Assembly (NCBI GenBank): GCA_017471245.1
Contig: JAFUVB010000085.1
Location: 1-38,845 of the forward strand
Reading direction: 5' to 3'
DNA from: Prevotella sp.
Lineage (GTDB): Bacteria > Bacteroidota > Bacteroidia > Bacteroidales > Bacteroidaceae
DNA length: 38,845 nucleotides
The stretch's first letter is position 1. Every line of letters starts with the position of its first letter. Shown one piece after another: positions 30 through 34,017 of this stretch. The notes beneath the pieces are model-generated. The model had not been told where the DNA came from and searched no databases. It saw only the letters and a program-made list of their open reading frames with translations. The position numbers and the translations under genes were made by a program.

Positions 30-449
30 GAGTATATTCTTTTGTCTTACTTTATAAGTAACCGGAAATCACCTATAAAGGTACAAAAAATATCTCAGAT
101 TACCAACTTTTTAGAAAACTTTCTTATCCCGAACTGGCGTATAAATAATTATTGTTCGCAAGTTCTGAAGACTACTCAAGCAGATAATCTCAAGCCGATT
201 ATCAAGGCTTTCAGTGACAAACAAGGCATCTGCAGCGCGCGGATAAGAGCATTGCAAAAAGTATGATTGCGAGTTACTCGGAGTGTTTGCTCTGAAAACA
301 GCTTCTTTTTGCATTGAAAACTGCGAGTTTTTCCGATGAAAACTCGCAGTTTTTGATGTAAAAACTTTCACGAACTCAAAAACGTTCATTCTCAGGTAGT
401 GTGAAACGCCATAAAAAGAAACGTAGAAGGGATGTGTGATGGCGAAAAG
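30..449. other. Gene-free stretch with a 22-bp array at its right side
   Basis: This AT-rich stretch separates the leftward edge gene from the 3' end of the antitoxin gene. Open frames on both strands overlap each other and show no recognisable domain, so I do not call a gene. The right part (251-382) is a 22-bp tandem array, listed separately. I see no clear intrinsic terminator for the antitoxin gene. Confidence 0.5.
251..382. repeat. 22-bp tandem array, locus 1
   Basis: Units of exactly 22 bp start at 295, 317, 339 and 361, and every one begins AAAAC or AAAACT. Two more degenerate units fit the register at 251 and 273. Units 317 and 339 contain a dyad, AAAAC-N5-GTTTT (15 bp), followed by a 7-bp spacer. 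Unit sequences drift while the period does not. The array lies just downstream of the antitoxin gene. Confidence 0.75.
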
Positions 450-1180: not shown

Positions 1181-1204
1181 AATGATAATTGTTTGTTTCG
1201 GTTG

Positions 1205-1212
1205 CAAATATA
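1205..1212 (-). promoter_or_regulatory. Bacteroidetes -7 promoter box for the toxin-antitoxin operon
   Basis: The minus strand reads TATATTTG, matching the TAnnTTTG -7 consensus of Bacteroidetes primary sigma factor promoters. It lies 25 bp before the toxin ATG, leaving a leader of roughly 15-20 nt. No clear TTTG -33 box is present at the right spacing. Confidence 0.5.
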
Positions 1213-1316
1213 CAACTTTTATTTTATTTATAAGTGAAATCGCATAAAAAAATAATAAATGCATTGTTATTTGATAGAGAATCCGATAGTTTTTTTTCTT
1301 TTCAGAAAAAAATGAT

Positions 1317-1324
1317 TACCTTTG
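1317..1324 (+). promoter_or_regulatory. Bacteroidetes -7 promoter box for the rhamnosidase operon
   Basis: TACCTTTG matches TAnnTTTG and sits 33 bp before the first ATG of the operon (1358). A T-rich tract lies where the -33 element is expected, without a perfect TTTG. Confidence 0.5.
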
Positions 1325-1357
1325 TAGTCGGAGCGAAGAGTATAGATAAAACAATAT

Positions 1358-8833: not shown

Positions 8834-10305
8834 GCAACCATAGGTTATTGAAGAACAATTGGAGTGCAATCATCATTGTGTTCCTCACACCGCTGTTGTG
8901 GTATTTCGTTTCAGCCATCCTGCCTACACACGACGACTGGACTTCGTTGACGAGACCCACCTTCGCTCCCTTCTTCACGAAGGAGCGGTTCTTTCTCTAC
9001 GGCAACTACTGGCGACCGTTTGACTCGATGATCGGTTATGTGGCAGGGCGCAATCCGCAGGCGTTGTTTCCCGCATTCCATCACATCCTTGTTGTCGTTG
9101 GTCATGTTTTGTGCTCATTGCTGGTTCTTCGGCTGCTCTCGGTTCTGCGTTTCGGTGTGACATCAAGGAATGTTGCCACGGTGTTTTTCTTCATCACGCC
9201 GGCTGCCATGGCGACTGTTACTGCCGTTGACAGTCAGAATCAGGTGTACTCGCTTTTATGTGGCATCGTGTCGTTTCTGCTGTATGTGGGCGTGAAAAAG
9301 GGAAAATATCTCCTTTGGGCTGTGTTTGTTTTCCTCGCAGCATTGTTTAAGGAGAACGGACTGATGTGGGCGCTCATCTGTCCGCTGTTGGCTTATGGAT
9401 TTGATTTCATTGATCGGAAATCACTGAGAAAGGATCTGCTGGCAGGCATAGGCATCATGGCAATGTATGCCTTGGCTATTGTCTTGCAGCCCAAGGACAT
9501 CGTTATTCAGGCGGAATACATTCCAGGCGTGATGAAGATCATAAAGAATATGGTGAAGTTCATGTTTACTTCTTTCGTCACCGTGGATTATGTTTATCTG
9601 CTTCATCAGCCTAATCGCAATATGTGGATGGCGGCAATCACCTTTCTGATGGCATTACCTTTTATATATAGTATACTCATTGGCAACGGAAAGACCCTTA
9701 TCGGGAAAAAGATGATCTGCACAATGCTTTGTCTGCTCATTGCAGTGGCACCGCATCTGCTCACCGTGTTCAGCATGATGCATGCCTATGCGGGACTTGC
9801 CATGGTAGCTGTGATGACGGCATGCCTGATGGATACGGGCAGACATGGAAAGGAAACAATGCTGTTTTTCCTGTTGTTTGCCGTCAACGCCGTTTTCATT
9901 GATGCTCATTTGATCAGCGAATCGGTGAAATCGGGGCAGGTGGGAAAGAGCATGGCCGTTGAGGCGATAAGGAAAACAGGAGAGCCGGCAAGAAGAGTAT
10001 ATGTGATAATCATTGAGGATGACTATCCGAAGCTGTCTTCATTCTGTGTGGTTCCCAGTGATGCGTTTGGATGGGGGAGGGCTGCACAGTATGAAACCAA
10101 CAACCAATGGCCGGAGGAGATTCGCGACACAACGATTCTTCGTGCGCCCGATTCCATGCAAAGGGCAAAGAAGATAGGTTCGGAAATACTTGAAAAGGAT
10201 TCTTTCGACTGTGTGTGGATTGTGGATGGAAAGCATATTGTAGAAGCAAGTGGCAAGAGACAGTTTTTAGAAGCAAGAAGCAAGAGGCAAGAAGCAAGAG
10301 AATAG
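8821..10305 (+). CDS. Polytopic inner-membrane protein, GT-C glycosyltransferase-like
   Basis: The product is 494 residues with roughly ten hydrophobic helices between residues 15 and 370. The first loop carries THDDW, followed by YWRPFD, which resembles the acidic first-loop motif of GT-C enzymes that use polyprenyl-phosphate sugars (PMT/ArnT type). KENGL occurs near residue 180. Residues about 375-480 form a soluble tail. I cannot assign a substrate. The gene overlaps the preceding one by 13 bp, so it is co-transcribed with secreted glycan-degrading enzymes, an odd partner. The last residues (EARSKRQEARE) are encoded by the GAAGCAA heptamer repeat, and the TAG stop is the first three bases of the repeat core, so the native C-terminus has been replaced or extended. 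Confidence 0.6.
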   Translation: MEKVSNHRLLKNNWSAIIIVFLTPLLWYFVSAILPTHDDWTSLTRPTFAPFFTKERFFLYGNYWRPFDSMIGYVAGRNPQALFPAFHHILVVVGHVLCSLLVLRLLSVLRFGVTSRNVATVFFFITPAAMATVTAVDSQNQVYSLLCGIVSFLLYVGVKKGKYLLWAVFVFLAALFKENGLMWALICPLLAYGFDFIDRKSLRKDLLAGIGIMAMYALAIVLQPKDIVIQAEYIPGVMKIIKNMVKFMFTSFVTVDYVYLLHQPNRNMWMAAITFLMALPFIYSILIGNGKTLIGKKMICTMLCLLIAVAPHLLTVFSMMHAYAGLAMVAVMTACLMDTGRHGKETMLFFLLFAVNAVFIDAHLISESVKSGQVGKSMAVEAIRKTGEPARRVYVIIIEDDYPKLSSFCVVPSDAFGWGRAAQYETNNQWPEEIRDTTILRAPDSMQRAKKIGSEILEKDSFDCVWIVDGKHIVEASGKRQFLEARSKRQEARE

Positions 10306-10402
10306 AACTATGATATAGTCACGAGCGTGGAGCGTTGTATCTCTATACATATCTCTTGCTTCTTGCTTCTTGCCTCTTGCTTCTTAATAAACTTCTTGCT
10401 TC
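10243..10402. repeat. Heptamer-armed element E1 with 54-bp core
   Basis: The left arm has GAAGCAA at 10270, 10277 and 10291 and GAGGCAA at 10284, with outlying units from 10243. The right arm has the reverse complements TTGCTTC/TTGCCTC at 10356, 10363, 10370 and 10377 and a last unit at 10396. Between them lies the core, 10303-10356, which aligns without gaps to the cores at 20057 and 31060. The arms could pair into a long hairpin. The stop codon of the rightward gene lies in the core and the stop of the leftward WbqC gene directly abuts the right arm. A role as a bidirectional terminator is possible. Confidence 0.85.
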
Positions 10403-14796: not shown

Positions 14797-14859
14797 AAGA
14801 CTCGTTGAACACGCAGATCGTCCCCAAGTTTTCGTGAGAGATTTTGTTCCAGTCTTGCA

Positions 14860-15013
14860 ATACCTATGGTTTCATGCCCCGAAACCTATGTTTTTAAGCC
14901 TCAAAACCTATGTTTTTAAGCCTCAAAACCTATGCTTTTGAGCCCCGAAACCTATGCTTTTGAACGGTGAAACCTATGCTTTTGAACGGTGAAACCTAAG
15001 CTTTTGCGCAGCA
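14860..15013. repeat. 22-bp tandem array, locus 2
   Basis: Seven contiguous units of exactly 22 bp start at 14860, 14882, 14904, 14926, 14948, 14970 and 14992. All contain ACCTAWG followed by a T-rich tract. Units 2 and 3 are identical, as are units 5 and 6. Units 2-3 sit on the dyad AAAACctatGTTTT. An eighth, degenerate unit fits at 15014. Confidence 0.9.
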
Positions 15014-15128: not shown

Positions 15129-15524
15129 ATGGAATTTATCTTCGAGACAAGGATGATGGTGCGCGATTATGAGTGCGACATTGAGGGAATTGTGAACAAT
15201 GCCAACTATCTGCATTACATCGAGCACACGCGCCACCTGTTTCTCAAGGAGCGCGGACTCAGCTTTGCCGCCATGCACGAGAAGGGAATCGACGCCGTAG
15301 TGGCGCGCATGAGCATGCAGTTCAAGGTTCCCCTGCGCTGCGACGATGAGTTTTTCTCGCGATTGGCTCTGAAGAAGGAGGGCGTCAAGTATATCTTCTA
15401 TCAGAACATCTACCGCGCCGGCGACGAAAAGCTCTGTTTCAGGGCAACCGTTGAGCTGGTGTGCGTGGTGAACGGCAAGCTGGGCAACAGCGAGGAATAC
15501 GACCGTGCTCTTCTCGGATCGTAA
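15129..15524 (+). CDS. Acyl-CoA thioesterase, 4HBT/YbgC-like hotdog fold
   Basis: The product is 131 residues, the normal size of a single hotdog domain. The N-terminus VRDYECDIEGIVNNANYLHY carries the family pattern with D17 at the usual catalytic aspartate position, and IEHTRHLFLKE continues the central helix. Family members hydrolyse acyl-CoA thioesters in the cytoplasm; the chain-length preference cannot be read here. The end of the gene (RALLGS and the TAA stop) lies within the 22-bp array at 15500-15587, so its extreme C-terminus may derive from the repeat. dprA follows after 77 bp on the same strand. Confidence 0.85.
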   Translation: MEFIFETRMMVRDYECDIEGIVNNANYLHYIEHTRHLFLKERGLSFAAMHEKGIDAVVARMSMQFKVPLRCDDEFFSRLALKKEGVKYIFYQNIYRAGDEKLCFRATVELVCVVNGKLGNSEEYDRALLGS

Positions 15525-15587
15525 TAATGTCATTCTCGGAAAGTAATAATGTCATTCTTGGAAAGTAAAACGCGCCATTTCGGATAG
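15500..15587. repeat. 22-bp tandem array, locus 3
   Basis: Units of exactly 22 bp start at 15522, 15544 and 15566, and a fourth diverged unit at 15500 is inside the thioesterase gene. The first two differ by a single base (TTCTCGG versus TTCTTGG). Each of the three begins TAA, and the TAA of the first is the thioesterase stop codon. The array ends 14 bp before the dprA ATG. Confidence 0.8.
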
Positions 15588-15601: not shown

Positions 15602-16735
15602 ATGGATCAGGAAATCACGGAGATACTTTATACGCTTGCGCTCACGCGCATCAACTATTTCAATCTCGCAGGACTGCGCCAGCTGTATGAAAAATTGGGC
15701 AGTGCCACAGCCATCATGGACCATCGGAGCCATCTCAACGATGTGGTTCCCGATGCGTCGCCTAAGCTTGTGCAGGGACTACAGTCAATCGACGAGCCGC
15801 TGAAACGGGCCGAGGCAGAACTGGAATACGACCTGGCTCACGACATTCTGCCCATTCCGATGAACGACGTGCGCTATCCGCAGCGACTGAAAGAATGCGA
15901 CGATGCTCCGCTCCTGCTGTTCTACAAGGGAAACGCCGACCTGAACCAGCAGCGAATCATCAATATTGTGGGAACGCGACACTGCACTGCATACGGGCAA
16001 GACCTGGTAAGGCGATTCGTCACCGACCTGCGCCAACTGTGTCCGCGCGTGCTCATCGTGAGCGGAATGGCATACGGCGTTGACATACATGCCCACAGGA
16101 ATGCGCTGCATAACGGTTACGAGACGGTGGCAGTGCTGGCTCACGGCTTAGACTATCTCTATCCGCCACGCCATAAGCCCACAGCCGATGCCATGTTGCA
16201 GCAAGGCGGGCTGCTTACTGAGTTTTTCACGCAGACAAACGCCGACAAGGTGAACTTCGTGCGCCGAAACCGCATCGTGGCAGGCATGAGCGATGCCTGC
16301 TTGCTGGTGGAGTCGGCAGCGCATGGAGGCGGGTTGATCACGGCACGACTGTCGCGCGACTACAACCGCGACGTATTTGCCTTCCCCGGGCGTGTGGGCG
16401 ATCTCTATTCAGAAGGTTGTAACAACCTGATTCGCGACAATGGAGCCGTGCTGGTGAACAGTGCTCAAGACTTCGTGAATGCAATGGGTTGGGGCGACGA
16501 TGCCACGCTGATGAGGGCGCAGCAACAGGGTATTGAGCGCGAGCTCTTCCCGTCGCTGACTGCCGAAGAGAGGCTTGTGGCTGAAGCACTGTCGGTGCAA
16601 AACGACCAGCAAATCAACATGCTCACCGTGCGCACTAACCTGCCCATAGCCCGTCTCACGGCTCTGCTCTTCGAACTGGAGATGAAAGGAGTGGTGAAGA
16701 CTATGGCAGGCGGATGTTATCATCTGATTCTATAG
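15602..16735 (+). CDS. dprA: DNA-processing protein DprA
   Basis: The product is 377 residues. DprA (Smf) binds single-stranded DNA and loads RecA during natural transformation. Order of parts: an N-terminal helix-hairpin-helix-like region (1-70), a Rossmann-like DprA domain (about 80-290) with IVGTRHCTAYG (122-132), VSGMAYGVDIHAH (153-165) and VESAAHGGGLITA, and a C-terminal winged helix (about 305-377). Length is typical. The short 77-bp gap to the thioesterase gene is mostly a 22-bp array. The TAG stop runs straight into a GAAGCAA heptamer array. Confidence 0.95.
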   Translation: MDQEITEILYTLALTRINYFNLAGLRQLYEKLGSATAIMDHRSHLNDVVPDASPKLVQGLQSIDEPLKRAEAELEYDLAHDILPIPMNDVRYPQRLKECDDAPLLLFYKGNADLNQQRIINIVGTRHCTAYGQDLVRRFVTDLRQLCPRVLIVSGMAYGVDIHAHRNALHNGYETVAVLAHGLDYLYPPRHKPTADAMLQQGGLLTEFFTQTNADKVNFVRRNRIVAGMSDACLLVESAAHGGGLITARLSRDYNRDVFAFPGRVGDLYSEGCNNLIRDNGAVLVNSAQDFVNAMGWGDDATLMRAQQQGIERELFPSLTAEERLVAEALSVQNDQQINMLTVRTNLPIARLTALLFELEMKGVVKTMAGGCYHLIL

Positions 16736-16965
16736 AAGCAAGAAGCAAGAGGCAAGAAGCAAGAGACAAGAGGTAAGAAGCAAGAAGCAAGAGGCAAGAA
16801 GCAAGAGATTAGAACCATATATTGTAGAGGCAAGTGGCAAGAAGCAAGAGGCAAAAGATTAGATATAAAGAATCAAGAAGTAAGAGGCAGGATGCAGTGG
16901 TTTAGAAATAAGTGATAAGCAAGAAGTATTCTCTTGCTTCTTGTTTCTTGCCTCTTGCTTCTAAT
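16734..16965. repeat. Heptamer tract E2 with decayed core
   Basis: GAAGCAA/GAGGCAA-type units begin at 16735 on the last base of the dprA stop and run past 16806. A truncated core (TAGAACCATATATTG, from 16810) follows, then more heptamers including GAATCAA, GAAGTAA and GAGGCAG. The right arm of TTGCTTC/TTGCCTC units lies at about 16926-16965. The long left arm and the broken core suggest expansion and decay of an E1-type element. It fills the dprA-dusB gap. Confidence 0.8.
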
Positions 16966-19792: not shown

Positions 19793-19941
19793 GTGACAAA
19801 AATACAAAAAAAATAGGAATTATTGATTTTTATATGAAAAAAATCGCTTTTTTATTTACTTTTTAGTTTTTGTTTGGTAAAGAAAATCTTATTTGGGGGT
19901 AAAATCGTACATTTATAGAAACAAGAAGAAAGATTTCTTCA

Positions 19942-20137
19942 GAGGCAAGAAGCAAGAGGCAAGAAACAAGAGATTAGTATTAAGAAGCAAGAGGTAAGAG
20001 GCAAGAAGCAAGAGAATAGAACTATGTCAGGAATCAAGAAGCATGAGGCAAGAGGTTAGAACCATGGTGTTACCATGAGTATAGAGCGTTGTATCTCTAT
20101 GCATTTCTCTTGCTTCTTGCCTCTTGCTTCTTCCTTC
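19942..20137. repeat. Heptamer-armed element E3 with 54-bp core
   Basis: Left arm: GAGGCAA, GAAGCAA and variants (GAGGTAA, GAAACAA) from 19942. A truncated core copy starts at 20017 (TAGAACTATGTCAGG) and the full 54-bp core is at 20057-20110. The right arm of TTGCTTC/TTGCCTC units runs to about 20137. The core matches E1 at 42 of 54 positions with no gap. It lies 3' of the leftward 1020-residue gene and 5' of the sigma gene. Confidence 0.85.
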
Positions 20138-20170
20138 TTTAAGCAAGCAGAGCTTGCTGCTGCTATGCTT

Positions 20171-23100
20171 TTACAGCTTTTCCAACCAGTAGACAGTGCC
20201 TTCAGAGGTGTCTGCAACACCATAGATATCTTTCAATTTTGCTGATTTCATCGAAAGTTTTGTTTCTCCAGTTCGCGTGTTCACTGTATAGATGTTATAC
20301 TTGCCCGGTTCTATGAGGATGCTGATGGTTGATGATTTGGAATAAACGAGATAGCCCGCATTTGGGTGTCCCAGTGCCACACAACCGGTTCCGTCCATGG
20401 TTTTCATCTTGCAGATGTCGCTCAACAGTTTGTTGTTCTTGATGTTTACGTTTGGCATGGAGCCTCCAGCCATCAGGATTGCCCATCCGTATGTGGGGTA
20501 TTGCTGTGCATAGAATGTAACTGCCTTGTCGGGATACTTCTCGCGGTATTCGCGCACGGCCTTGTAGGCTTCGTCAAAACCAGTCTTTCCTGATGGCCAC
20601 TTGCGCACCCACTGTCTCGGTGCCATGTTCTTTCCTGCTTCAGGAGCCCAGAGTTCCTTGGTGTTGTAGTGCCAATAGCGAATGTCTATGATATCCACCA
20701 CCTTATTTAATTTAGGATCAGCAAGCAGGGCATCCTGCGCATCCTTCGTGCAGCTGAGAGCAATCAGCGGGTGGCAACCGGTTTCTGCTTCCCATTCTGC
20801 AATGGTCTCAAGCCAGAAACGGGTGAAATGCAGCGGTCCGGTGTATTCGGCACTGATCATGTGAACCACGTTTGGCTGGTCTTTCAGCAGGTCAAGGCAC
20901 ATGCGGATATACTGTCGGTGTAGCGGGCGCAGCACAGGATTGTCTACATCATAGAACTGTTCCGCCATGAACACGCGCTTGTCGCCAGTAAAAGGCACGG
21001 GTTCTGGGAAGTTGGTGCCATTGATATTGTTTACGGGGCGCCATGGGCAATCCACCCAATGCGCACCAGCTTCCAGGATGTTGTGCTGGAAATAATGCTC
21101 ATTGAAAAGCAGAATGCCTTTTGGATTTCCTTTTTCTGCAAATTCGTTCAGTCGTTGCCAATACCATTGGTTGGGCTTGTTCAGGTCGTAACGGCTCAGT
21201 CCGTCCCAAGAAACCTCTTTTCCTGAACGGGCGAAAGGTTGTTCATAGAAGGGTGCTCCCACATCTCCGTCGGCTCGGCGTACACGCTCATGGTCGGTGC
21301 GACGTATGTCATACCAGAGTCCGTAGTGATGGTCAAGTGCAGCAAAATGGTGACGTTCCAAGTAGTTGATCACCGAATCAATGCGGTCGGTCCATCCCGT
21401 TCCTTCCCTTCCTGGTACGAATCGGGTGATAGCTGGTCGTGCTCCGCGCTTGGTGAAACTGTCTTTCACGCTGCCCGACCACCACGGAATCTCATACTGG
21501 TTGCCGGTTAGCAGCTGCTGATCCATCGTGAGATGTCCGTCTTTGACTGTATATTCGCGCGCGCGTTCCTTAATTATATGTGCCTTTGGAGCCTTGATGT
21601 CGTCAATGCTTTTGATGCCGTTGGCGTTTGTCGGTGCAGTGTATTCAATGCTGTCGAGCCACATTTCCATGGTAAGCCGCGGTTCTGTGAGCGATACATG
21701 TGCCATTCTCATGGCTTGTTCCACGGTCGGGCTGGTGGTTCCCTCCAAGTCTCGGGGCAGGATATAGGGCTTCACGGCATGAGCTGTTGGCAGATTCTTC
21801 GCCTTGAGGCGTTCTTCCAATTGTGCGTAGAACAGGCTTCGCGGGTGCACATGGTTGTTGCTCCCTAACCATTCCGCATTGCCGGTGAGCGTTCCCCAGC
21901 ATCCGTTGGCACTGCAGCGGTTGTCTTCGTCGGGCGAATAGCACCATAGTGTGGAGGCGGTGCACTGCCAAAGCATGGAGTTGGCTGTGTTCCAGCCCGT
22001 TCCCTGCATCCATTGCTCCAGGTTTCCAAGGTGGATGTCGTGTCCGTCGATGTTCACAATGTCAAACAGCAACCCCGCTGCCCACGAACCGATGCTGCCA
22101 CTGAACCCCAATGATTCTTCGCTGTCGCACTGCACAAAGGCATTTGGACCTGCGGCACAGGCACCGGCAACGAAGTCATGAATGCCGTTTCGCGACACGC
22201 AGCGCTGCACCAGGGTCTGCTGTCCTCTCGTGAGAAACACGCTTCTGCGCCAGCCGCCAACTTCGGAAACAGGCTCCGATGCGATGCAGTCTTCCACCGT
22301 GATACGACTGCAATCCAATTGGATGTTCACTGCCGAGCCGGCAAAGTGCTTGAAGTCAACACGTCTCACCCAGCAGTCGCGCACGTGATCCATGCGAATA
22401 GCATCCCAGCAATGGTCTTCGTCTTTGGGGTTCCAATTGTTTTTCTCTGATTTCATCGTGAGGTTCTCAACTCCGCATTCGCAGATTTCACCCTCGTTGT
22501 AGCCCTTGTTCACATATCCGTTGCCGAATTCCTTGCTCAGTGTGGTGGTGATGGGTGCATCGATGGTGATTTGGTTGCCGCTTACTGCCGTGACAACGCG
22601 GTTCCATGTGATGATGATGTCAGCAGGTTTCCAGCCAGAGCCATCGAGTCCGCCGCCGAAACCGTTCATCTTCAGCGACTGAATCCACTCCATGGTTGAC
22701 GGGCGGGTGATAAGAATGCGGTCGCCCACGGCGATTCCCTGCGTGCTTGCTAATGAAAGCTGTGTGCTTCCTGCCAAGGTCTTGTTACCTAAAATGTCGA
22801 TGGAATCGCCGATTTTTAGTTTGTTCTCACCTTCAAAATACAGCATTGCACCGCGGTCGGCACCGCGTTTCACCAGTGTGGTAACATCTTTCCCCATGCC
22901 GCGAATCACAATGCCTGAAGCAGTAATGTGCAAAGGGCGGTCAATGAAGAACGTTCCTTCGCCTAAGAGAATGGCACCGCGTTGCCCGTCGGCATTCGCT
23001 TTCAGTGTCGCCACATAGTCGATGGCGCGTTGAATGCGGTCGCTACAGTCACCTTCCGTAGCCTTTACAAACACCACATTGGCAACATCAGGAATGGCTG

Positions 23101-23233
23101 TTTCCGATGCGCGGTATCCGCAAGTGGAATAGTCCATCGGCACATAGAGTTTCTTCTCTGGTTTGGGGGCTGCTGTTCCTGTCATGAAAAACAGGCATAG
23201 CAGCAAGCTGAGAATATGTAATCTTGTTTTCAT
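20171..23233 (-). CDS. Secreted two-domain beta-helix (pectate lyase-like) / TIM-barrel-like protein
   Basis: The product is 1020 residues with a signal peptide (hydrophobic LSLLLCLFFMTGTA, cleavage near 22). Residues about 30-470 have the pectate-lyase-3-type beta-helix opening: DCSDRIQRAIDYVATLKANA, AILLGEGTFFIDRPLHI, SGIVIRGMGKDVTTLV, then helix rungs with repeated VENLTM, VRRVDF and VEDCIA steps. Residues about 610-930 look like a glycosidase-type TIM barrel (LLFNEHYFQHN, MISAEYTG, VDIIDIRYWHYN), similar to DUF6298-type Bacteroidetes proteins. A small C-terminal beta domain (about 940-1020) follows. The E in FNEHYF and in SAEYTG are candidate catalytic acids. Substrate is unknown; pectic glycan is inferred from the neighbours. 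It is divergent from the first SusCD cassette. Confidence 0.7.
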   Translation of the reverse strand: MKTRLHILSLLLCLFFMTGTAAPKPEKKLYVPMDYSTCGYRASETAIPDVANVVFVKATEGDCSDRIQRAIDYVATLKANADGQRGAILLGEGTFFIDRPLHITASGIVIRGMGKDVTTLVKRGADRGAMLYFEGENKLKIGDSIDILGNKTLAGSTQLSLASTQGIAVGDRILITRPSTMEWIQSLKMNGFGGGLDGSGWKPADIIITWNRVVTAVSGNQITIDAPITTTLSKEFGNGYVNKGYNEGEICECGVENLTMKSEKNNWNPKDEDHCWDAIRMDHVRDCWVRRVDFKHFAGSAVNIQLDCSRITVEDCIASEPVSEVGGWRRSVFLTRGQQTLVQRCVSRNGIHDFVAGACAAGPNAFVQCDSEESLGFSGSIGSWAAGLLFDIVNIDGHDIHLGNLEQWMQGTGWNTANSMLWQCTASTLWCYSPDEDNRCSANGCWGTLTGNAEWLGSNNHVHPRSLFYAQLEERLKAKNLPTAHAVKPYILPRDLEGTTSPTVEQAMRMAHVSLTEPRLTMEMWLDSIEYTAPTNANGIKSIDDIKAPKAHIIKERAREYTVKDGHLTMDQQLLTGNQYEIPWWSGSVKDSFTKRGARPAITRFVPGREGTGWTDRIDSVINYLERHHFAALDHHYGLWYDIRRTDHERVRRADGDVGAPFYEQPFARSGKEVSWDGLSRYDLNKPNQWYWQRLNEFAEKGNPKGILLFNEHYFQHNILEAGAHWVDCPWRPVNNINGTNFPEPVPFTGDKRVFMAEQFYDVDNPVLRPLHRQYIRMCLDLLKDQPNVVHMISAEYTGPLHFTRFWLETIAEWEAETGCHPLIALSCTKDAQDALLADPKLNKVVDIIDIRYWHYNTKELWAPEAGKNMAPRQWVRKWPSGKTGFDEAYKAVREYREKYPDKAVTFYAQQYPTYGWAILMAGGSMPNVNIKNNKLLSDICKMKTMDGTGCVALGHPNAGYLVYSKSSTISILIEPGKYNIYTVNTRTGETKLSMKSAKLKDIYGVADTSEGTVYWLEKL

Positions 23234-23707: not shown

Positions 23708-25219
23708 ATGAGAACAAACAGAAAAATCCGACGAGGAAAGATTCGCGCCCTGCTTTGGACGTTGGGCGTGATGATCTGTTCCAGCTGTGCCGATGGCTAT
23801 GATTCGCCAAACGGCTTTGACTTGGGTGTTAAGAATACCCAAATGGAATCTCCCGACTCCGTTTCGTTTATTGTCAGTGCCGACGGAAAGTCAGCAGTGG
23901 TGTCATGGGATGTCGTTCCTGGCGCCGACGGTCATGTGGTGACATTCCAGAATGTGGATGATCCTGCCAACCCTGTGGTAATCGACGGTATTGAGGACAA
24001 AGTGATTGACGGTAGCAGGTTCACTGTTTCCGTGGCTGAAGACTCTAAGTACAAACTCTCTATCCGCACATTGGGAAACAAGAAACTGAACAATACCGAT
24101 GCTGCAGAGGCAAAGACATACGATCTCACCACCCTCATACCGAAGATAGCAACCATACCTTCGGGTTCCGACATTTATGAGTGGTGGCAGGCTCAGGAGT
24201 TGGACACGCTCGCCTATGAGGTAGCTATTGAGTTAGAGCCGGGTGGTGAGTACACGCTTTCCGACCAGGTTGACTTTGCCGGTCACTTGTTTACGTTCCG
24301 TGGTGACAAGGTGAACCGTCCCGTGGTGAGGATTACTGGCAATGGTTCGTTTGCCACTTACAACGGATTGAAGGTGAAGTTCATCAACTTCGACATGACC
24401 GAGGCAACGGCAGGCGGATTCGTATGCATGAGCAAGGATAACCTGCCCGACAACATCCTCAGCCAGAACCTTGGTTTCATGCGCAGCGGTGCAGCCATCA
24501 ATGGTATATATAACGTGCTCAATCCCATCTATATCTCACAGTGCTGGTTCAAGAACCTGCCTCATGCCATGCTCTATTGCAACGACGTTGCATGCGCCTA
24601 CTGGAATTTCACCGTGAGCGACTGTATTGTGCAGATGAACAATACCACCAAATCAAACATTGGCTTCATCAATCTCTATAATACAGGTCGTCAGGTGAAG
24701 AACATCGTGATTGAAAACAGCACCATCTACAACATTGTTGACAACGATCAGGCATGCTTCGCACGCTATGCCGTCAGCGACTCCAACACACAGCCCGAGA
24801 AAGTGTTCGGAAACACCACTGCTGCCATGAACAGCACATCGTGGAAGATCAGCAAGACCACTTTCTCAAAGACTTATACGGGTTGGCGCTGGGTGAATAA
24901 CGTGAGCGGAACAGGTCGTACAATGACCATCGACCATTCACTCTTCTACGATGTTTCTCAGCTCTATCGTGTGAACAGCGGAACCCGTACTTACCGCTTC
25001 AATGTGCTGTGGAGCCCGCGTGAGGACGATATCACCCGCAACAGCAGCATGGGCGATTCCGGCGGTGCCACCTTCGCAGCCATCTACGATCCCAAGTTCC
25101 AGGGCGACGTAACGCAGGAGCTCGACTTTTCCAAGCCCAACGGCGGTGTAGACTTCACCCCCACAGAGCCTCAGGTGATTGCCAATGGTGTGGGCGATCC
25201 GCGCTGGCTTGCCAAATAA
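23708..25219 (+). CDS. Surface lipoprotein, DUF4957/DUF5123-like, cassette 1
   Basis: The product is 503 residues. A basic N-terminus and hydrophobic stretch end in ICSSC, giving a lipidation cysteine at about C27. Residues about 45-140 form a fibronectin-III-like domain (VVSWDVVPGADGHVVTFQNV, DDPANPVV, LGNKKLNN). The remainder (about 165-500) is a beta-helix-like domain (YTLSDQVDFAGHLFTFRGDK, NGLKVKFINFDM, VIENSTIYNI) and ends VGDPRWL. This matches DUF4957/DUF5123 lipoproteins found in Bacteroidetes glycan-utilisation loci, presumed surface glycan binders. It is 30 bp before susC and is paralogous to the gene at 37379-38845. Confidence 0.8.
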   Translation: MRTNRKIRRGKIRALLWTLGVMICSSCADGYDSPNGFDLGVKNTQMESPDSVSFIVSADGKSAVVSWDVVPGADGHVVTFQNVDDPANPVVIDGIEDKVIDGSRFTVSVAEDSKYKLSIRTLGNKKLNNTDAAEAKTYDLTTLIPKIATIPSGSDIYEWWQAQELDTLAYEVAIELEPGGEYTLSDQVDFAGHLFTFRGDKVNRPVVRITGNGSFATYNGLKVKFINFDMTEATAGGFVCMSKDNLPDNILSQNLGFMRSGAAINGIYNVLNPIYISQCWFKNLPHAMLYCNDVACAYWNFTVSDCIVQMNNTTKSNIGFINLYNTGRQVKNIVIENSTIYNIVDNDQACFARYAVSDSNTQPEKVFGNTTAAMNSTSWKISKTTFSKTYTGWRWVNNVSGTGRTMTIDHSLFYDVSQLYRVNSGTRTYRFNVLWSPREDDITRNSSMGDSGGATFAAIYDPKFQGDVTQELDFSKPNGGVDFTPTEPQVIANGVGDPRWLAK

Positions 25220-28724: not shown

Positions 28725-31019
28725 ATGACACGCAATATATTGAAATCAATAAGTGCCGTCTGCCTCATCAGTGCCGCATTGATGAGCTGCAACGACGATT
28801 TCCTTGCCGAGAAGCGTCCCTTCGGCTCCTTCGGAGAGAACGACGTTTATAACGACTGGGAATCGGTGAAGCTCCGCCTGAACTATATCTATCAGGGATC
28901 GCTGCCTTATTTCCGTGACTATAATTCAAATGGCGGGAACATGGGTGGCAATTCCACCTCTACCAACGGACCGAGCGACCTCTGGCCGGTGGGACTGCCC
29001 GATGTGCTTTCCACCAATGCCGACGAGTTTGCCGGCTATGGCAACAACGGCTATGGCTATTATGCCGACCCGGCAACCGTATGGACCAATACCAACATCC
29101 ATAAGTATTTCTGGACGGGAACCAACGAAAACCCGTGGAAGAAGATGCGCGAGTGCACCGACGTCATCGTGAAAGTGGGGCGCAGCGAAGGTCTTTCCGA
29201 CGACCAGAAGAAATGGGCAATGGGTCAGGCACGCTTCTTCCGCGCCACCCGCTATTTCCGTCTGTTCAAGCGTTTCGGCGGTCTGCCGATTATCCGCGAC
29301 CTGCAGAGCACCACGCTCAGCGATACACTCGACCTGAGAGTGACGCGCCAGTCGTCGGAAGACACCTATAAGTTCATCATCGAAGATCTCACCACCGCAG
29401 GCGAAGAGCTGCCCGTGCGCTGGGAAGAGGAAGCCAACGACTGGGGGCGCGTTACTGCCGGAACAGCATACGCACTGGCAGGCTACGTGGCCAACTATTA
29501 TGCCAGCCCGGTGTTCAACCGCCAGGACGAGCAGGAGCGTTGGCAGCAGGCTTACGAGCTGAACACCAAGGCGATTGAAAAGCTCAACGAAGGACACTTT
29601 GGTATGTCATACGAAGGCAATCCCGGAAACAATGCCAGCAACTGGGCAAAGATATGGTGCAACATCTTCGGAGGCGACAACCTGAACTCCGAGGCTGTGT
29701 TCATGGCCAACTGCAACAATGCTCCCGGCGATGCCGGCGATCAGCTGTACAACTGCTTGGAGCAGAAACTGCGCCCGAGCAACACCGGCGGCGCAGGCGG
29801 CATCACTCCTTCTGCCGAGATGGTGGATGCGTTCCCCATGGCCGACGGCAAGCGCCCCGAGGAAGGTGGTCTTTATCAGTATGACAAGAAACTCTTCTTC
29901 CTGAACCGCGACCCGCGTTTCTATCGCACTTTCGCCTTCCCCGGCACAGAATGGAAGTTCCAGGGATCCATCGACTCCACTCAAATCAGGAGTCCTTATG
30001 CCACCGGTCAGGAGTATCAGTTGCAGAACTGGGCATGGTATAACAATGCCGACAACATGACTGCCGCCGACCAGTATGGCTACTACGGCGATTATTTAGG
30101 AAGAAACGGTAAGTCAATCTACGTGCGCAAGAAGTCGCAGGACTACGGTCTGGGCGTCACTCCGATGTATGTCTTCGACAGCTCTTCTGCATTCAGCCGC
30201 AATGCACAGCCGCTCATTGCTATGCGCTACACTGAGGTGCTGCTCAATCTGGCTGAGTCTGCCTGCGGCATCAACCGCTTGGATGAGGCTTGGAACATTC
30301 TGGTGCGCATCCGCCAGCGTGTGGGCTATACCGGCGACTGCGGTCTGAATCCCGAAATACGCAGCAACCGCGCCAAGATGTTCGAGGCTATCCTCTATGA
30401 GCGCATGATTGAGCTCGCATACGAAGGCAAGCGCTTCGACGACTGCCATCGCTGGATGCTATTCGACGGCGGAGTGGGACAGGACGAAATCGGCGGCAGC
30501 AGCTGGATTCCCTCTGGATGGGGCGGCAACACCTGCACCTATCTTGGTGTGAAACCGCTCAACGACGTCACCCTGCACAGGATTGAAATCTATTTCGACC
30601 CAGAGGCATTCATGGGAGCTTATGCCGAGACCACCGATCCTTTCGCTGCTCTGGAAATCAGCAAGCCCAAAGCGCTGACACTCGATGAAGACTTCACAAC
30701 CGTTACCGACGAGGACGGAAACACCACCTATAACAACACCAACGTGAGGAGCATGGCTAACTTCTACCGTGCCTACATGCTGCGCAAGGACATCACCACC
30801 ATGAACGTGGTTGATGAGGAGACGGGCAACGTGAACGTTCCCACATGGGACAAGAAGTGCTATTTCATGGGTCTTGCCTCTTCCGATCAGGACAACAACC
30901 CCAACGTGGTGCAGACCATCGGCTGGAACAGCGTATTCGGCGGAATGGGTTCATTCGATCCGCTCAGCAAGAATCCTAATACCTCGGTAGAATCTGAGGT
31001 TTCTACAACCACTGAGTAA
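28725..31019 (+). CDS. SusD-family glycan-binding lipoprotein, cassette 1
   Basis: The product is 764 residues, longer than archetypal SusD (about 550). A signal peptide ends in LMSC with the lipidation cysteine at C22, and NDDFLAEKR follows as in SusD/RagB proteins. Family features include KKMRECTDVIVKVG, WAMGQARFFRATRYFRLFKR, TAYALAGYVANYYASPVFNR and LIAMRYTEVLLNLAESACG. It caps the SusC barrel and presents glycan. It follows susC by 25 bp and ends the rightward cassette; a heptamer-armed element follows immediately. Confidence 0.93.
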   Translation: MTRNILKSISAVCLISAALMSCNDDFLAEKRPFGSFGENDVYNDWESVKLRLNYIYQGSLPYFRDYNSNGGNMGGNSTSTNGPSDLWPVGLPDVLSTNADEFAGYGNNGYGYYADPATVWTNTNIHKYFWTGTNENPWKKMRECTDVIVKVGRSEGLSDDQKKWAMGQARFFRATRYFRLFKRFGGLPIIRDLQSTTLSDTLDLRVTRQSSEDTYKFIIEDLTTAGEELPVRWEEEANDWGRVTAGTAYALAGYVANYYASPVFNRQDEQERWQQAYELNTKAIEKLNEGHFGMSYEGNPGNNASNWAKIWCNIFGGDNLNSEAVFMANCNNAPGDAGDQLYNCLEQKLRPSNTGGAGGITPSAEMVDAFPMADGKRPEEGGLYQYDKKLFFLNRDPRFYRTFAFPGTEWKFQGSIDSTQIRSPYATGQEYQLQNWAWYNNADNMTAADQYGYYGDYLGRNGKSIYVRKKSQDYGLGVTPMYVFDSSSAFSRNAQPLIAMRYTEVLLNLAESACGINRLDEAWNILVRIRQRVGYTGDCGLNPEIRSNRAKMFEAILYERMIELAYEGKRFDDCHRWMLFDGGVGQDEIGGSSWIPSGWGGNTCTYLGVKPLNDVTLHRIEIYFDPEAFMGAYAETTDPFAALEISKPKALTLDEDFTTVTDEDGNTTYNNTNVRSMANFYRAYMLRKDITTMNVVDEETGNVNVPTWDKKCYFMGLASSDQDNNPNVVQTIGWNSVFGGMGSFDPLSKNPNTSVESEVSTTTE

Positions 31020-31023
31020 TACT

Positions 31024-31146
31024 TAGAGGATTAGAGGTGAGAAGTCAGAGGTGAGAGATTAGAACTATTATATAGGCATGAGTAAAGAACTTTGTATCTC
31101 AGTGCATATCTCTCACCTCTAATCTTCTCACCTCTAATCCACTAAA
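31024..31146. repeat. Heptamer-armed element E4 with 54-bp core, GAGGTGA type
   Basis: The left arm uses GAGGATT, GAGGTGA, GAAGTCA and GAGGTGA instead of GAAGCAA. The core, 31060-31113, aligns without gaps to E1 (42 of 54 identical) and E3 (41 of 54). The right arm carries the matching TCACCTC and TAATC units. It begins within 10 bp of the susD stop. The arm sequence differs from E1-E3 on both sides at once. Confidence 0.8.
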
Positions 31147-31193: not shown

Positions 31194-31220
31194 AATCTGT
31201 TTAATCCGTGAAATCCGTTG
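31194..31220. repeat. 9-bp triple tandem repeat
   Basis: Three contiguous 9-bp units, AATCTGTTT, AATCCGTGA and AATCCGTTG, occur between E4 and the 22-bp array. Short tracts with this ATCCGT pattern are, from memory, not rare in Prevotella intergenic DNA. Function is unknown. Confidence 0.5.
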
Positions 31221-31252: not shown

Positions 31253-31582
31253 GTAAATTACATTAATTTGCGCGGTAAATTAATGTAATTTACTTTTCAA
31301 TTTAACTTAATTTACTCAGCAAATTAAATTAATTTGCAGCGGCATACCTCTGTTATGAAGCCTCCATATCGCTGCCTTCAAGCTTGAAAAACGGCGTTTT
31401 CGACCTTTAGCAATAACACTTTCGATCTTCAAAACAGCGTATTCGTGCTTGAATAGCAGCGTTTTCGAACCTCCAAAACGATTCCTCGGAATGGTAAATC
31501 AATTTGATTTGCACGGTAAATCAAATTGAATTGAAAAACAAATCAAGTTGATTTGCAAAGTAAATCAATTTGATTTGCTGGT
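31253..31582. repeat. Composite 22-bp tandem array, about 15 units, locus 4
   Basis: Class A units start at 31253, 31275, 31297 and 31319 with cores such as AAATTACATTAATTT. Class B units start near 31385, 31407, 31429, 31451 and 31473, with AAAAC-ggc/agc-GTTTT dyads. Class C units start at 31495, 31517, 31539 and 31561 with AAATCAATTTGATTT. Two diverged units (31341, 31363) link A to B. The register holds across class changes with at most a 1-bp slip. The 21-bp arms at 31249-31269 and 31277-31297 are also a perfect inverted repeat. Confidence 0.9.
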
Positions 31583-31657
31583 CCCTTTCGCTGTAAACGT
31601 GGCTCAAAAGTGGCGCTTACTTGCTTCTATAGTGCTGCTTTTCTCGTCTCTGTTACC

Positions 31658-31717: not shown

Positions 31718-34006
31718 TTACTCGGTTGTCGTACCGGCTGGCTCGGCTGTCAGCGGATCGTAGGTTCCGTTGCTGCCGCTCTTGTAGTAGTCTTCCCATC
31801 CAACAACCTGCGGGAGGTTGGGGTTGTTGATCTGCTCGCCCTGGGTGAATCCCCAGAAATAGTAGCGGGCGTTCCACGACATGGTGAGCGGAGTGTTGTT
31901 GGAGTCGTAGGCATCGCCCTTGATCTTCTTTCTCACGAGATACGTGTCGTAGAAGGTCTTCAGGTTTTCCAACTGCTCGTCGAGCGGTTTATTCACGATG
32001 GTTTCGCTCAGGTCAACGGCATAGGCATCACGTGTGGCGCGTGTCAGACCGCCCATGTTTGATTTGAGAATCGGGTCGGGGTTGGTCTCGTCTTTCTTCT
32101 CTGTGTTGTCGCCTGCCGTGAATGGCCATGTGCGTCCGCTCTGTCCGTCGGTATAGTTGTACTTGTTCTGCAGACGGAACACGAACTCGTCGCGGCGCTG
32201 ACCCACGAAGGGCTTGAATCCTAAGTAGGTGCAGGTGTTGCCGCCCCATCCTGTCAGTGCCTTTGCTCCGGCTCCTGCCAGTCCCACGCCGCCATCGAAG
32301 AGCAGCCAGCGGCGCATGTCCTCGAAGCGCTTGCCTTCGTAGGCAAACTCAATCTGGCGCTCATAGAGGATGGCAGCCATGCAGGCAGCCTGGTCGCCGG
32401 TGAGGTTTGCGGGCAGTCCGTAGTTGTTGTCAGCCGTGTAGCCTGCGCGTGCTCGGATGCGCTTCAGAAGGTCTACAGCCTCGCCCATTTGGTTAGCGCC
32501 GCATGCAGCCTCTGCCAGGTTGAGAAGCACTTCGGCATAGCGTATCTCCATGGTGGATGTCATGCACTCACGGAAACCTACGTTCTTGCCGGCAGTGTTG
32601 AAGTTGTAGTTGGGTGTGGCGTTCACATCGAGGTCGTCGGAGAACTTGCGGATGTACATGCCGTGAACGGATGTGAGCAGGTTGTCGGCGCCGAAATGGT
32701 CGCTGCTCATCACGTTGTCGAAGTTTGCCGGGTCGTTATACCACACGTAGTTCCAGAGAATGTATTTGTCGCCCGTGTATGGGTTGGCACTGGTGCTGGT
32801 GTTCGGGTCGCCCGTGAAGCGCCAGTATTCGCCTGGGAAGGCAAATGTGCGATAGAAGCGCGGGTCGCGATTCATGAACGGATGCTCTGCATCGTAGGCG
32901 ATGGCAGAAGCTTCCACCTTGGTGTACGAATCGTAGGTGGCAGGGCGCTTGCCGTCTTTCATCGGGAAGAGGTCCACAATCATGTCGGTTGGCGTCTTTC
33001 CGTTGTTGCCCAATGTGTTGGCAGGACGTATCTGCTGTTCCCACAGGTTGTTACGCTGATAGTCGGGCGTAAGGTCGGGTGTGTTCTTGTTATAGCAGGA
33101 AACGAACACAGCCTCGGGGTTGTTCACGATGCCGAGGAACATCTTTGCCCATCCCGATCCGTTCACGCCGGGGGCGTTTTCGTTGGCAAGTCCGTATCCG
33201 CAGGCGTTGATGGTGCCTATTTCCTGCTTGATGGTGTTGTAGGCATTCGTCCAGCGGCTCTGGTCGTTGTCACGATTGAACAGCGGGCTTGCCCAGAGAA
33301 TCATGATACGATGCTTCAGTGCCAGGCAGGTTCCGGTGGTTACGCGTCCCCAGTCGTTTGCCGACCATGAGCTCTCCACGGTGCGCTTCTTCAGCATTTC
33401 TGCCGACTTGTCGAGTTCGCTGCAGAGGAAGTCGTAGCATTCCTGAGCGTTGGAGCGCGGGGTGAATGATTCAGGCACGGGATTCTGCACCTCGGTAACG
33501 AGAGGAATGGAACCATAGTAGCGGAACAACAGGTAGTAGCACCATGTGCGGAGGAAGAAAGCCTGACCCAAGAGTTCGTCTTTCTCGCTGTCGGAGAGCG
33601 TGCTTCCCTGTATTCCTTCGATGGTTTCGTTGATTTCGCGGATGCGGCTCCATGACGAACCGAAGTATCCGGGAGCGCCTGATGTGCCGGTCACGGTGTT
33701 CAGCGTCACCTGCGGATCAACGAATGTGCTGAAGTTGCGGTATTCCTCGGTGCTCTGAGAGTGGTTGTCTGCCATTCCGAGGCTGTTGTATTGCCACATC
33801 TGGCTGGCGCCAGCCTGGATGTTTGGCAGCGTGATGCGGTAGCACTCGTTGAGTCGGCCGTTGGCACCACTGTAATAATTGTAAATCTCTGATGACACAT
33901 TGCTATAGTTCTTCTTGTCCTGGATGAACTCGTCGCTACAGCTGCTCATCGTTGCTGCCACAGCCATTGTGAGGCAAATGGCACCTATATTGAATATTCT
34001 TTTCAT
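31718..34006 (-). CDS. SusD-family glycan-binding lipoprotein, cassette 2
   Basis: The product is 762 residues from MKRIFNIG (ATG at 34006); two in-frame ATGs at 34015 and 34012 are alternatives. The lipidation cysteine is C23 in TMSSCSDEF. Family features are LLGQAFFLRTWCYYLLFRYY, TTGTCLALKHRIMILWASPL and MEIRYAEVLLNLAEAACGAN. Length and sequence parallel the cassette 1 SusD, for example the shared GGNTCTYLG near the C-terminal third. It lies 11 bp after the susC stop and is followed by a clear terminator. It is expected to be the lid of the adjacent SusC transporter. Confidence 0.93.
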   Translation of the reverse strand: MKRIFNIGAICLTMAVAATMSSCSDEFIQDKKNYSNVSSEIYNYYSGANGRLNECYRITLPNIQAGASQMWQYNSLGMADNHSQSTEEYRNFSTFVDPQVTLNTVTGTSGAPGYFGSSWSRIREINETIEGIQGSTLSDSEKDELLGQAFFLRTWCYYLLFRYYGSIPLVTEVQNPVPESFTPRSNAQECYDFLCSELDKSAEMLKKRTVESSWSANDWGRVTTGTCLALKHRIMILWASPLFNRDNDQSRWTNAYNTIKQEIGTINACGYGLANENAPGVNGSGWAKMFLGIVNNPEAVFVSCYNKNTPDLTPDYQRNNLWEQQIRPANTLGNNGKTPTDMIVDLFPMKDGKRPATYDSYTKVEASAIAYDAEHPFMNRDPRFYRTFAFPGEYWRFTGDPNTSTSANPYTGDKYILWNYVWYNDPANFDNVMSSDHFGADNLLTSVHGMYIRKFSDDLDVNATPNYNFNTAGKNVGFRECMTSTMEIRYAEVLLNLAEAACGANQMGEAVDLLKRIRARAGYTADNNYGLPANLTGDQAACMAAILYERQIEFAYEGKRFEDMRRWLLFDGGVGLAGAGAKALTGWGGNTCTYLGFKPFVGQRRDEFVFRLQNKYNYTDGQSGRTWPFTAGDNTEKKDETNPDPILKSNMGGLTRATRDAYAVDLSETIVNKPLDEQLENLKTFYDTYLVRKKIKGDAYDSNNTPLTMSWNARYYFWGFTQGEQINNPNLPQVVGWEDYYKSGSNGTYDPLTAEPAGTTTE

Positions 34007-34017
34007 AAACATCATGA

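What the first reader, a model, noticed from the sequence alone, without database searches (positions are those of the whole stretch)
31253..31582. Composite 22-bp phased array of three unit classes between converging SusCD cassettes
About 15 units keep a 22-bp register (one 1-bp slip) although the sequence changes from AAATTA-N3-TAATTT dyads to AAAAC-N3-GTTTT dyads to AAATCAATTTGATTT dyads. A constant period with changing sequence suggests selection on spacing, near two DNA helical turns, so that dyads face the same side of the helix. That would fit an array of sites for a dimeric or nucleoid protein, or a chain of short hairpins in RNA. I know of no named element like this.
Basis: partly seen in the sequence, partly recalled or inferred. 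Interest (0 to 1): 0.85.

Follow-up and report, generated by a model that had tools for sequence, protein, structure and literature searches.

The report
Dispersed 22-bp phased dyad arrays, Prevotella
Between genes in this rumen-type Prevotella genome lie dozens of short DNA arrays whose units repeat every 22 base pairs even where the unit sequence changes, and other Prevotella species carry arrays of the same spacing with different sequences, which suggests that something may read the spacing.

Summary
The 330-bp region keeps a 22-bp register (lag-22 identity 0.56, null 0.28, z 10) with one 1-bp slip. It holds two of 47 arrays found in 40 regions of this genome. Their plan is an AT-rich core, usually exactly four 15-bp dyads, with about three GC-type units on each side in the same phase. 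Rumen Prevotella relatives show the same plan with other flank sequences and mostly four or six core units; nearly every step is 22. In intergenic stretches outside the known AT arrays, lag 22 is far above shuffles in this genome (8 against 0.05) and in same-genus genomes (23 against 0.35; 12 against 0.2 without genomes picked after a first look), with unrelated unit sequences. Of 126 arrays, 125 have stops in all six frames. No fixed ends, RAYT link or shared curvature appeared. Against function: the sister species lacks the array here, and units look homogenised. Best reading: a DNA platform for an unknown oligomeric dyad-binding protein (0.45). Main rival: a neutral, gene-converted repeat (0.33).

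The parts
31255..31335 (.). AT-rich core 1: four 15-bp dyads (31255, 31277, 31299, 31321), step 22
31337..31495 (.). seven GC-type, mostly imperfect units in 22-bp register (one 1-bp slip) between the two cores
   Evidence: lag-22 identity 0.485, z 6.0
31496..31576 (.). AT-rich core 2: four dyads AAATCAATTTGATTT-like (31496, 31518, 31540, 31562), step 22
31584..31642 (.). right flank: three further GC-type units in the same register
   Evidence: read from the print-out; family plan
28725..31019 (+). SusD-like gene (PF07980) ending left of the array
31718..34015 (-). SusD-like gene (PF07980) ending right of the array; convergent
14858..15006 (.). second array class in the window: about 7 units CAAAACCTATGCTTTTAAGCCC, period 22; upstream of the same gene the sister species has an AT-core array (L117 752-832)
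281..355 (.). third, weaker 22-bp array (GAGTTTTTGCAATGAAAACTGC, 3.4 copies, 70% matches)

Best explanation
The region holds two copies of a dispersed chromosomal element: a ladder of 15-bp dyads stepped every 22 bp, with a nearly fixed number of strong AT-rich sites (four here and in the sister species, mostly six in two other species) inside weaker GC-type sites of the same phase. Shown: the period, the phase shared by different unit classes, the species-typical unit number, non-coding placement, independence from gene direction, and the same period with unrelated sequences in other Prevotella. Inferred: the ladder is read as double-stranded DNA by a dimeric, dyad-recognising protein that assembles side by side (four or six dimers) and wraps or coats about 90-220 bp at transcription-unit boundaries. 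Selection would then act on spacing and site number more than on sequence, while gene conversion between copies homogenises the sites within a genome and lets specificity drift between species together with the protein.
For: With a free gap of 2-32 bp between two exact units, all 50 forward matches listed (of 96) had a gap of 7 or 29, that is steps of 22 or 44. Successive-unit distances up to 100 bp were 22 in 138 of 148 here (6 more are 44 or 66), 85 of 88 in UBA4268 (the other 3 are 44), 90 of 90 in RUG178 and 103 of 103 in RGIG7592. Flanks outside the core have lag-22 z-scores of 9.7, 10.1, 13.4 and 16.3 (here, UBA4268, RUG178, RGIG7592), with lags 21 and 23 at most about z 2.6, although flank sequences differ between species. 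Unit number: 4 in 38 of 47 arrays here; 4 in 27 of 31 in UBA4268, 6 in 13 of 21 in RUG178, 6 in 16 of 22 in RGIG7592. Seven double arrays are spaced by multiples of 22, five exactly and two one base short. A/T runs at neighbouring phases are nearly absent at flank units 2-3. Of 126 arrays none lies in a predicted gene and 125 have stops in all six frames. Stretches outside the known AT arrays: lag 22 gives 8 of 26 arrays here (null 0.05) and 23 of 97 in 28 same-genus genomes (null 0.35, largest of 20 nulls 2); leaving out G004, G023, G025 and G034, which I sampled after seeing an array in them, 12 of 72 (null 0.2). One place upstream of the same gene has different unit classes with the same period in two sister species.
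Against: No binding protein is known. The array at this locus is absent from the sister species' matching site, so it is not needed there. Units within an array are homogenised in direct orientation, as in neutral tandem arrays. Dyad symmetry is not universal: 6 of 26 same-genus lag-22 arrays had a palindromic consensus at p <= 0.05 (4 of 19 at lag 21, 2 of 68 at all other lags), 1 of 8 in the own-genome stretches, and the AAACCTATGCTTTT class is a poor dyad. Lag 21 is also in excess (18 of 97, null 0.6), of which about half are heptad repeats. 15 of the 23 same-genus lag-22 arrays come from three genomes, and G023 gave none, though single arrays were seen. Placement by gene orientation does not differ from other long intergenic regions (12 of 34 tandem against 29 of 54, p 0.12).
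Confidence: 0.45

Rival explanations
1. A neutral dispersed repeat: a minisatellite-bearing intergenic family copied by patchy gene conversion or an unknown dispersal route, with the 22-bp step inherited from its origin and no host function.
For: In the listed pairs of copies (same-locus pairs set aside) similarity breaks off at scattered points: left ends -164 to +19, right ends -16 to +245 relative to the core (at most 25 pairs listed per genome). Direct likeness within arrays exceeds that between arrays (z <= -2) in 23 of 42 unit pairs. The site of this array is empty in the sister species. In UBA4268 the AAACCTATG class sits inside a conserved dispersed element of about 470 bp in the six copies aligned. 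Published Prevotella and Porphyromonas repeats of unknown function exist (PINSR, BrickBuilt).
Against: The same 22-bp step recurs in unrelated sequences of different species. Unit number is nearly fixed. Phase persists through flank units of about 40% identity here and in UBA4268: a rough simulation of the seven double-array spacings gives joint odds of 0.024 to 0.00003 for indel/substitution ratios of 0.02-0.1, on assumed rates.
Confidence: 0.33
2. Intrinsically curved or wrap-prone DNA (topoisomerase or nucleoid-protein wrapping without a sequence-specific reader), in the way that phased A-tracts act.
For: Flank units place AAA and TTT runs about 10 and 12 bp apart in turn; RUG178 and RGIG7592 cores are predicted to be curved (end-to-end/contour 0.78 and 0.77, shuffled 0.91).
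Against: Cores of this genome and of UBA4268 are predicted as straight as shuffles (0.94 against 0.94 and 0.95 against 0.94), and their flanks are only slightly bent (0.93 against 0.96; wedge parameters recalled). The G025 class GGTGATACTGGAGTATCATCAG holds no A-tracts.
Confidence: 0.1
3. A chain of short hairpins that acts in RNA (terminator, attenuator or processed RNA).
For: The two left-hand units 31255/31277 lie in a 21-bp perfect inverted repeat with a 7-nt loop, scored as the one terminator-like site of the region (0.4 +/- 0.7 in shuffles). GC-type and some other units fold alone with -2 to -5 kcal/mol. In this genome the unit pairs u1-u3 and u3-u4 show inverse complementarity at z -2.9 and -2.0.
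Against: Single AT units fold with 0 to -1 kcal/mol. Over four genomes inverse complementarity within arrays is better than between arrays (z <= -2) in 2 of 42 unit pairs and worse (z >= 2) in 18. Orientation relative to tandem genes is random (15 against 11). No Rfam family reaches its gathering score.
Confidence: 0.07
4. A MITE or a REP/RAYT-type palindromic element moved by a transposase.
For: Dispersed, palindromic, non-coding and lineage-restricted as far as seen.
Against: No fixed ends. The only Y1 transposase gene found in this genome lies among unrelated GC palindromes and no 22-bp array within 3.3 kb. No hit in viral contigs (exact pattern), plasmids or phages (blastn with its low-complexity filter).
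Confidence: 0.05

Closest known systems
PINSR, 188-bp intergenic repeat of Prevotella intermedia/nigrescens (PMC4755523; abstract and passages seen)
   Same: Intergenic, 177 and 184 copies in two strains, lineage-restricted within Prevotella, no terminal inverted repeats, function unknown.
   Different: Described as one 188-bp consensus restricted to its clade; no 22-bp register is reported in the passages seen. Its sequence is in a figure that is not held, so it could not be compared.
BrickBuilt, 23-nt minisatellite inside a MITE of Porphyromonas gingivalis (PMC4596501; passages seen)
   Same: Dispersed intergenic element of a Bacteroidales genome with a short tandem array (23 nt).
   Different: Has leader, tail and IS5-like terminal inverted repeats with target duplications, and variable unit number; here there are no fixed ends, the step is 22 and the unit number is nearly fixed.
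REP/BIME extragenic palindromes with RAYT transposases (recalled)
   Same: Palindromic units in intergenic clusters, species-specific sequences.
   Different: No RAYT link in this genome, AT-rich core units in place of GC-rich hairpins, strict 22-bp phase.
Multi-site operators of oligomeric dimer proteins, such as Lrp/AsnC-family octamers on 15-bp dyads (recalled; a lead only)
   Same: 15-bp dyads repeated about every two helical turns; four dimers would match four sites.
   Different: No protein identified; dozens of similar arrays in one genome and six-site versions elsewhere; not tested.
Phased A-tract clusters in bacterial genomes (PMC3940949, PMC7537859; search listing only)
   Same: A/T runs spaced about one helical turn apart in the flank units.
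   Different: Arrays of this genome are not predicted to be curved, and some classes elsewhere lack A-tracts.

Membership tests
MITE | Fixed ends shared by copies (terminal inverted repeats) | tested here: not met
   Breakpoints between listed copy pairs scatter over more than 150 bp on both sides
MITE | Target-site duplication at filled against empty site | tested here: inconclusive
   One matching empty site was read, but the whole intergenic region differs, so no junction can be defined
REP/BIME with RAYT | A Y1 transposase gene flanked by the repeat | tested here: not met
   One PF01797 gene found; the 3.3-kb locus holds other palindromes (2.4 kb read by eye) and no AT array or lag-22 run (whole locus)
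BrickBuilt | 23-nt unit inside leader and tail with IS5-like inverted repeats | tested here: not met
   Step 22; no fixed leader or tail around the AT-core arrays. A leader-array-tail element of about 470 bp exists for another class in UBA4268
PINSR | 188-bp consensus sequence | not testable with these tools
   The consensus is only in a figure
Structured RNA family (Rfam 15) | Score above a family's gathering threshold | tested here: not met
CRISPR array | Identical repeats separated by unique spacers of similar length | tested here: not met
   The 7-bp linkers recur between loci (GCTGAGT, GAAAAGT, GCGCGGT) and the units vary; cas genes not searched
Lrp/AsnC-type multi-site operator | Bound by an oligomer of that family | not tested
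   Needs pull-down or EMSA

The most novel reading that the evidence does not exclude
A genus-wide class of chromosomal element in Prevotella defined by geometry and not by sequence: ladders of units, often dyads, at 22 bp, with a fixed number of strong sites, at transcription-unit boundaries. A fast-evolving protein would read them, so that each lineage rewrites the unit sequence but keeps period and site count, somewhat as eukaryotic satellite DNA keeps unit length while its sequence turns over.
Probability: 0.3. Interest if true: 0.9.

Novelty: new variant of a known kind. Interest (0 to 1): 0.7.

Why it matters
If the period is under selection, Prevotella chromosomes carry dozens of standardised protein platforms whose reader is unknown, a handle on nucleoid or transcription-domain organisation in a dominant gut and rumen genus. 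It also makes a clean test possible: sequence classes vary naturally while spacing does not, so spacing and sequence can be separated experimentally. If instead the family is neutral, it is a striking case of concerted evolution that keeps a 22-bp unit across unrelated sequences, and it bears on unexplained repeats such as PINSR.

Tried and rejected
RNA hairpin chain: near-zero single-unit energies for the AT core and no general excess of inverse complementarity within arrays; rejected as the main reading, with the contrary signals named under that rival. Within-unit covariation gave no clear answer: the C..G/T..A association in core units is positive here (odds ratio 4.2, p 2e-6) but runs the other way in UBA4268 (0.38, p 0.05).

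REP/RAYT: one Y1 transposase gene, no array beside it. MITE: no fixed ends. Curvature as the common property: not shared by this genome and UBA4268. Rfam: none at gathering score. Mobile-element collections: no hit. Preference for convergent genes: 13 of 34 array-bearing regions against 14 of 54 long intergenic regions; the tandem/non-tandem contrast has p 0.12.

Corrections and limits of my own steps. One search prints nine sister-species pairs, but in L045/L090 the arrays lie on opposite sides of the shared gene, so I count eight sites (three with both flanks matched: L014, L023, L029; five with one flank: L010, L017, L027, L030, L044). One search compared 11 pairs; L018 and L041 lost synteny and were dropped. 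The chain finder allows only steps of 21-23 and up to 3 mismatches a unit, so the counts 7 and 5 at L029/L130 may miss units; searches do not fix the step. The 20 contig-start stretches came from contigs without a hit, so they lean against the AT class; with L048 they are the 21 own-genome stretches. G004, G023 and G025 were sampled more deeply after one search had shown an array, and the G034 stretch was taken at a known array; one search repeats the count without these four. 2 of the 28 genomes had no usable intergenic bases. One of the 8 own-genome lag-22 arrays is partly a heptad repeat. The simple gene caller misses genes (one 16-kb stretch of L193 without any, which is why that array fell out); therefore checks stop codons directly (1 of 126 arrays has a frame open across it, 309 nt). 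G034 and record RUG037 are probably one genome (contig length 165293 in both), so they are not counted as independent; other handles may also repeat named records.

Full report
What is there. Over 31253-31582 identity at lag 22 is 0.562 (null 0.276 +/- 0.028) and falls to 0.356 and 0.326 at lags 21 and 23. Eleven unit positions run from 31255, then four from 31496, one base short of register. The AT units are good dyads (8 of 8 with 6-7 of 7 pairs); the seven middle units keep the register (z 6.0) but only two are dyads in the fixed frame. SusD-like genes converge on the array.

It is a family. A search with the 330 bp found 106 matches in the 3.73-Mb genome, 40 of 52 candidate places having been scored. 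In 40 regions (the window and 39 fetched loci) I found 47 arrays of two or more units: 38 with four units, four with six, two with five and one each with three, seven and eight; the steps were 22 except one of 23, in a finder that allows 21-23. Aligning 37 four-unit arrays with enough flank, turned by the central GAAAAG linker, shows about three GC-type units on each side (GAAAGCGSCGCTTT-like) in the same phase, with information falling towards background beyond about -66 to -88 on the left and +154 on the right, an element of roughly 220-240 bp. Two arrays in one region lie 176, 176, 198, 198, 220, 241 or 109 bp apart, that is multiples of 22 in five of seven and one base short in two.

The period is the constant. 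With any gap of 2-32 bp allowed between two exact units, all 50 forward matches listed, of 96, had a gap of 7 or 29. With gaps of 1-21 allowed, 9 of 398 same-genus genomes matched (this one included) and every listed match had a gap of 7. In records of RUG178, RGIG7592 and UBA4268 the arrays step by 22 and mostly have 6, 6 and 4 units (13 of 21, 16 of 22, 27 of 31); successive-unit distances are 22 in 90 of 90, 103 of 103 and 85 of 88, and 138 of 148 here. Their flanks are also phased at 22 (z 13.4, 16.3 and 10.1; 9.7 here), although in the first two the flank sequence is another one, GGGAGCAATGCTCTG-like. In this genome and UBA4268 the phase is sharp at flank units 2-3 (about 71-79 in-phase A/T runs per position against 2 at neighbouring phases) and fades by units 7-8.

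Beyond this sequence class. In 21 own-genome stretches from contigs without a known AT array, 8 of 26 distinct intergenic arrays have 22 as best lag, more than any other lag (null 0.05 per shuffle set), including classes AAAACCTATGCTTTT and AAAAGATAATGTTTT. In 28 same-genus genomes sampled thinly (142 kb of intergenic DNA), 23 of 97 arrays have lag 22 (null 0.35) against 1, 1 and 2 at lags 20, 23 and 24, in 11 of 28 genomes; 15 of the 23 come from G004, G015 and G025. Without the four genomes that I sampled after seeing an array, it is 12 of 72 (null 0.2). Lag 21 is also in excess (18 of 97; 15 of 72), about half of it heptad repeats. Examples at 22 are GGTGATACTGGAGTATCATCAG and AAAGGTCAACCCTTTTTGTGAA in G025 and AAAAGACGGCCTTTTGCAACGC in G004. 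Some of the 23 are near threshold. A palindromic consensus (p <= 0.05) was found in 6 of 26 lag-22 arrays, 4 of 19 at lag 21 and 2 of 68 at other lags, so outside the AT class the period is better supported than the dyad. The order-level sample (20 stretches) gave 1 of 6 at lag 22.

Comparison with the sister species. UBA4268 DNA around several arrays is about 75-89% identical. At eight shared sites both species have arrays at step 22 with mostly four core units; this genome has two arrays where UBA4268 has one at three of them. At window 14858-15006 this genome has about seven AAACCTATGCTTTT units; upstream of the same gene (83% identical; the other flank was not matched) UBA4268 has an AT-core array. 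At the window's own SusCD site UBA4268 has only about 205 bp between the matched stretches, against about 635 here, and no array. So arrays are often inherited in place, sometimes differ in class, and sometimes are absent.

Tests of mechanism. None of 126 arrays lies within a predicted gene (own simple gene caller), and 125 of 126 have stops in all six frames. Orientation in tandem regions is random (15 against 11). Over 94 arrays of four genomes, direct likeness of units within an array exceeds that between arrays (z <= -2) in 23 of 42 unit pairs, while inverse complementarity does so in 2 of 42 and is worse (z >= 2) in 18; this speaks for concerted evolution and against RNA or cruciform pairing between units. 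Listed copy pairs share no fixed ends. The only Y1 transposase gene found has other palindromes around it and no array. Predicted curvature is not shared between species. Single AT units barely fold as RNA; GC-type units fold with -2.6 to -4.9 kcal/mol in four of the five tested.

Reading. A DNA-level platform for a protein that binds dyads and packs at 22-bp steps explains the fixed step, the near-fixed count, the graded sites and the independence from gene direction; the protein and the boundary role are inference. The neutral rival explains homogenisation and the empty site, but not why unrelated sequences share 22 bp. I cannot separate them by sequence alone and give 0.45 and 0.33. The checks did not change these odds.

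Literature. Seven searches of the open-access library gave no description of 22-bp phased arrays in Prevotella among the papers listed; the lists were cut (20 of 27, 15 of 60, 15 of 987), only titles and abstract starts were seen there, and subscription papers are not held. Nearest are PINSR (PMC4755523: abstract and passages) and BrickBuilt (PMC4596501: passages). Passages of PMC5771137 added nothing. PMC3940949 and PMC7537859 were seen only in the listing.

Noticed in passing
window 31023-31145, 2791-2875, 10269-10385, 16734-16962, 19941-20139: Second repeat family: heptad satellites, mostly as long inverted repeats (AGAGGTG/CTCACCT or AGAAGCA/TCTTGCT arms). By eye, copies at 31029-31139 and in L036 share a similar centre while the arm sequence differs but stays self-complementary. 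Heptad arrays with other sequences also occur in same-genus genomes.
   Followed up: partly
window 31199-31220; also L016, L020, L025, L027 left of arrays: A dispersed AATCCGTGAAATCCGTTGT-like repeat lies beside several arrays.
   Followed up: no
L269-L274 (UBA4268): The AAACCTATGCTTTT class sits in a conserved dispersed element of about 470 bp with leader and tail; these are not themselves 22-bp ladders (lag-22 not significant). 38 of 40 listed matches in that genome are to the array part; six copies were aligned.
   Followed up: partly
L242 1300-2000: The one Y1 (RAYT-like) transposase gene is surrounded by GC palindromes (cccagggc...gccctggg, ggcctgaaaggcc), possibly its own REP sequences.
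   Followed up: no
window 15511-15568: Another short 22-bp repeat, TTCTCGGAAAGTAATAATGTCA, 2.6 copies at 91%, at the end of one gene and into the following gap.
   Followed up: no
L061 (UBA4268) 1030-3335 against L014 3054-3085: Two predicted genes lie beside the array in UBA4268 and are absent at the matching place in this genome, the difference starting at the array's right side.
   Followed up: no
window 20171-23233 and 23708-25219: DUF6298 protein and DUF4992/DUF4957 protein next to the left SusCD pair, a likely polysaccharide-use locus.
   Followed up: no
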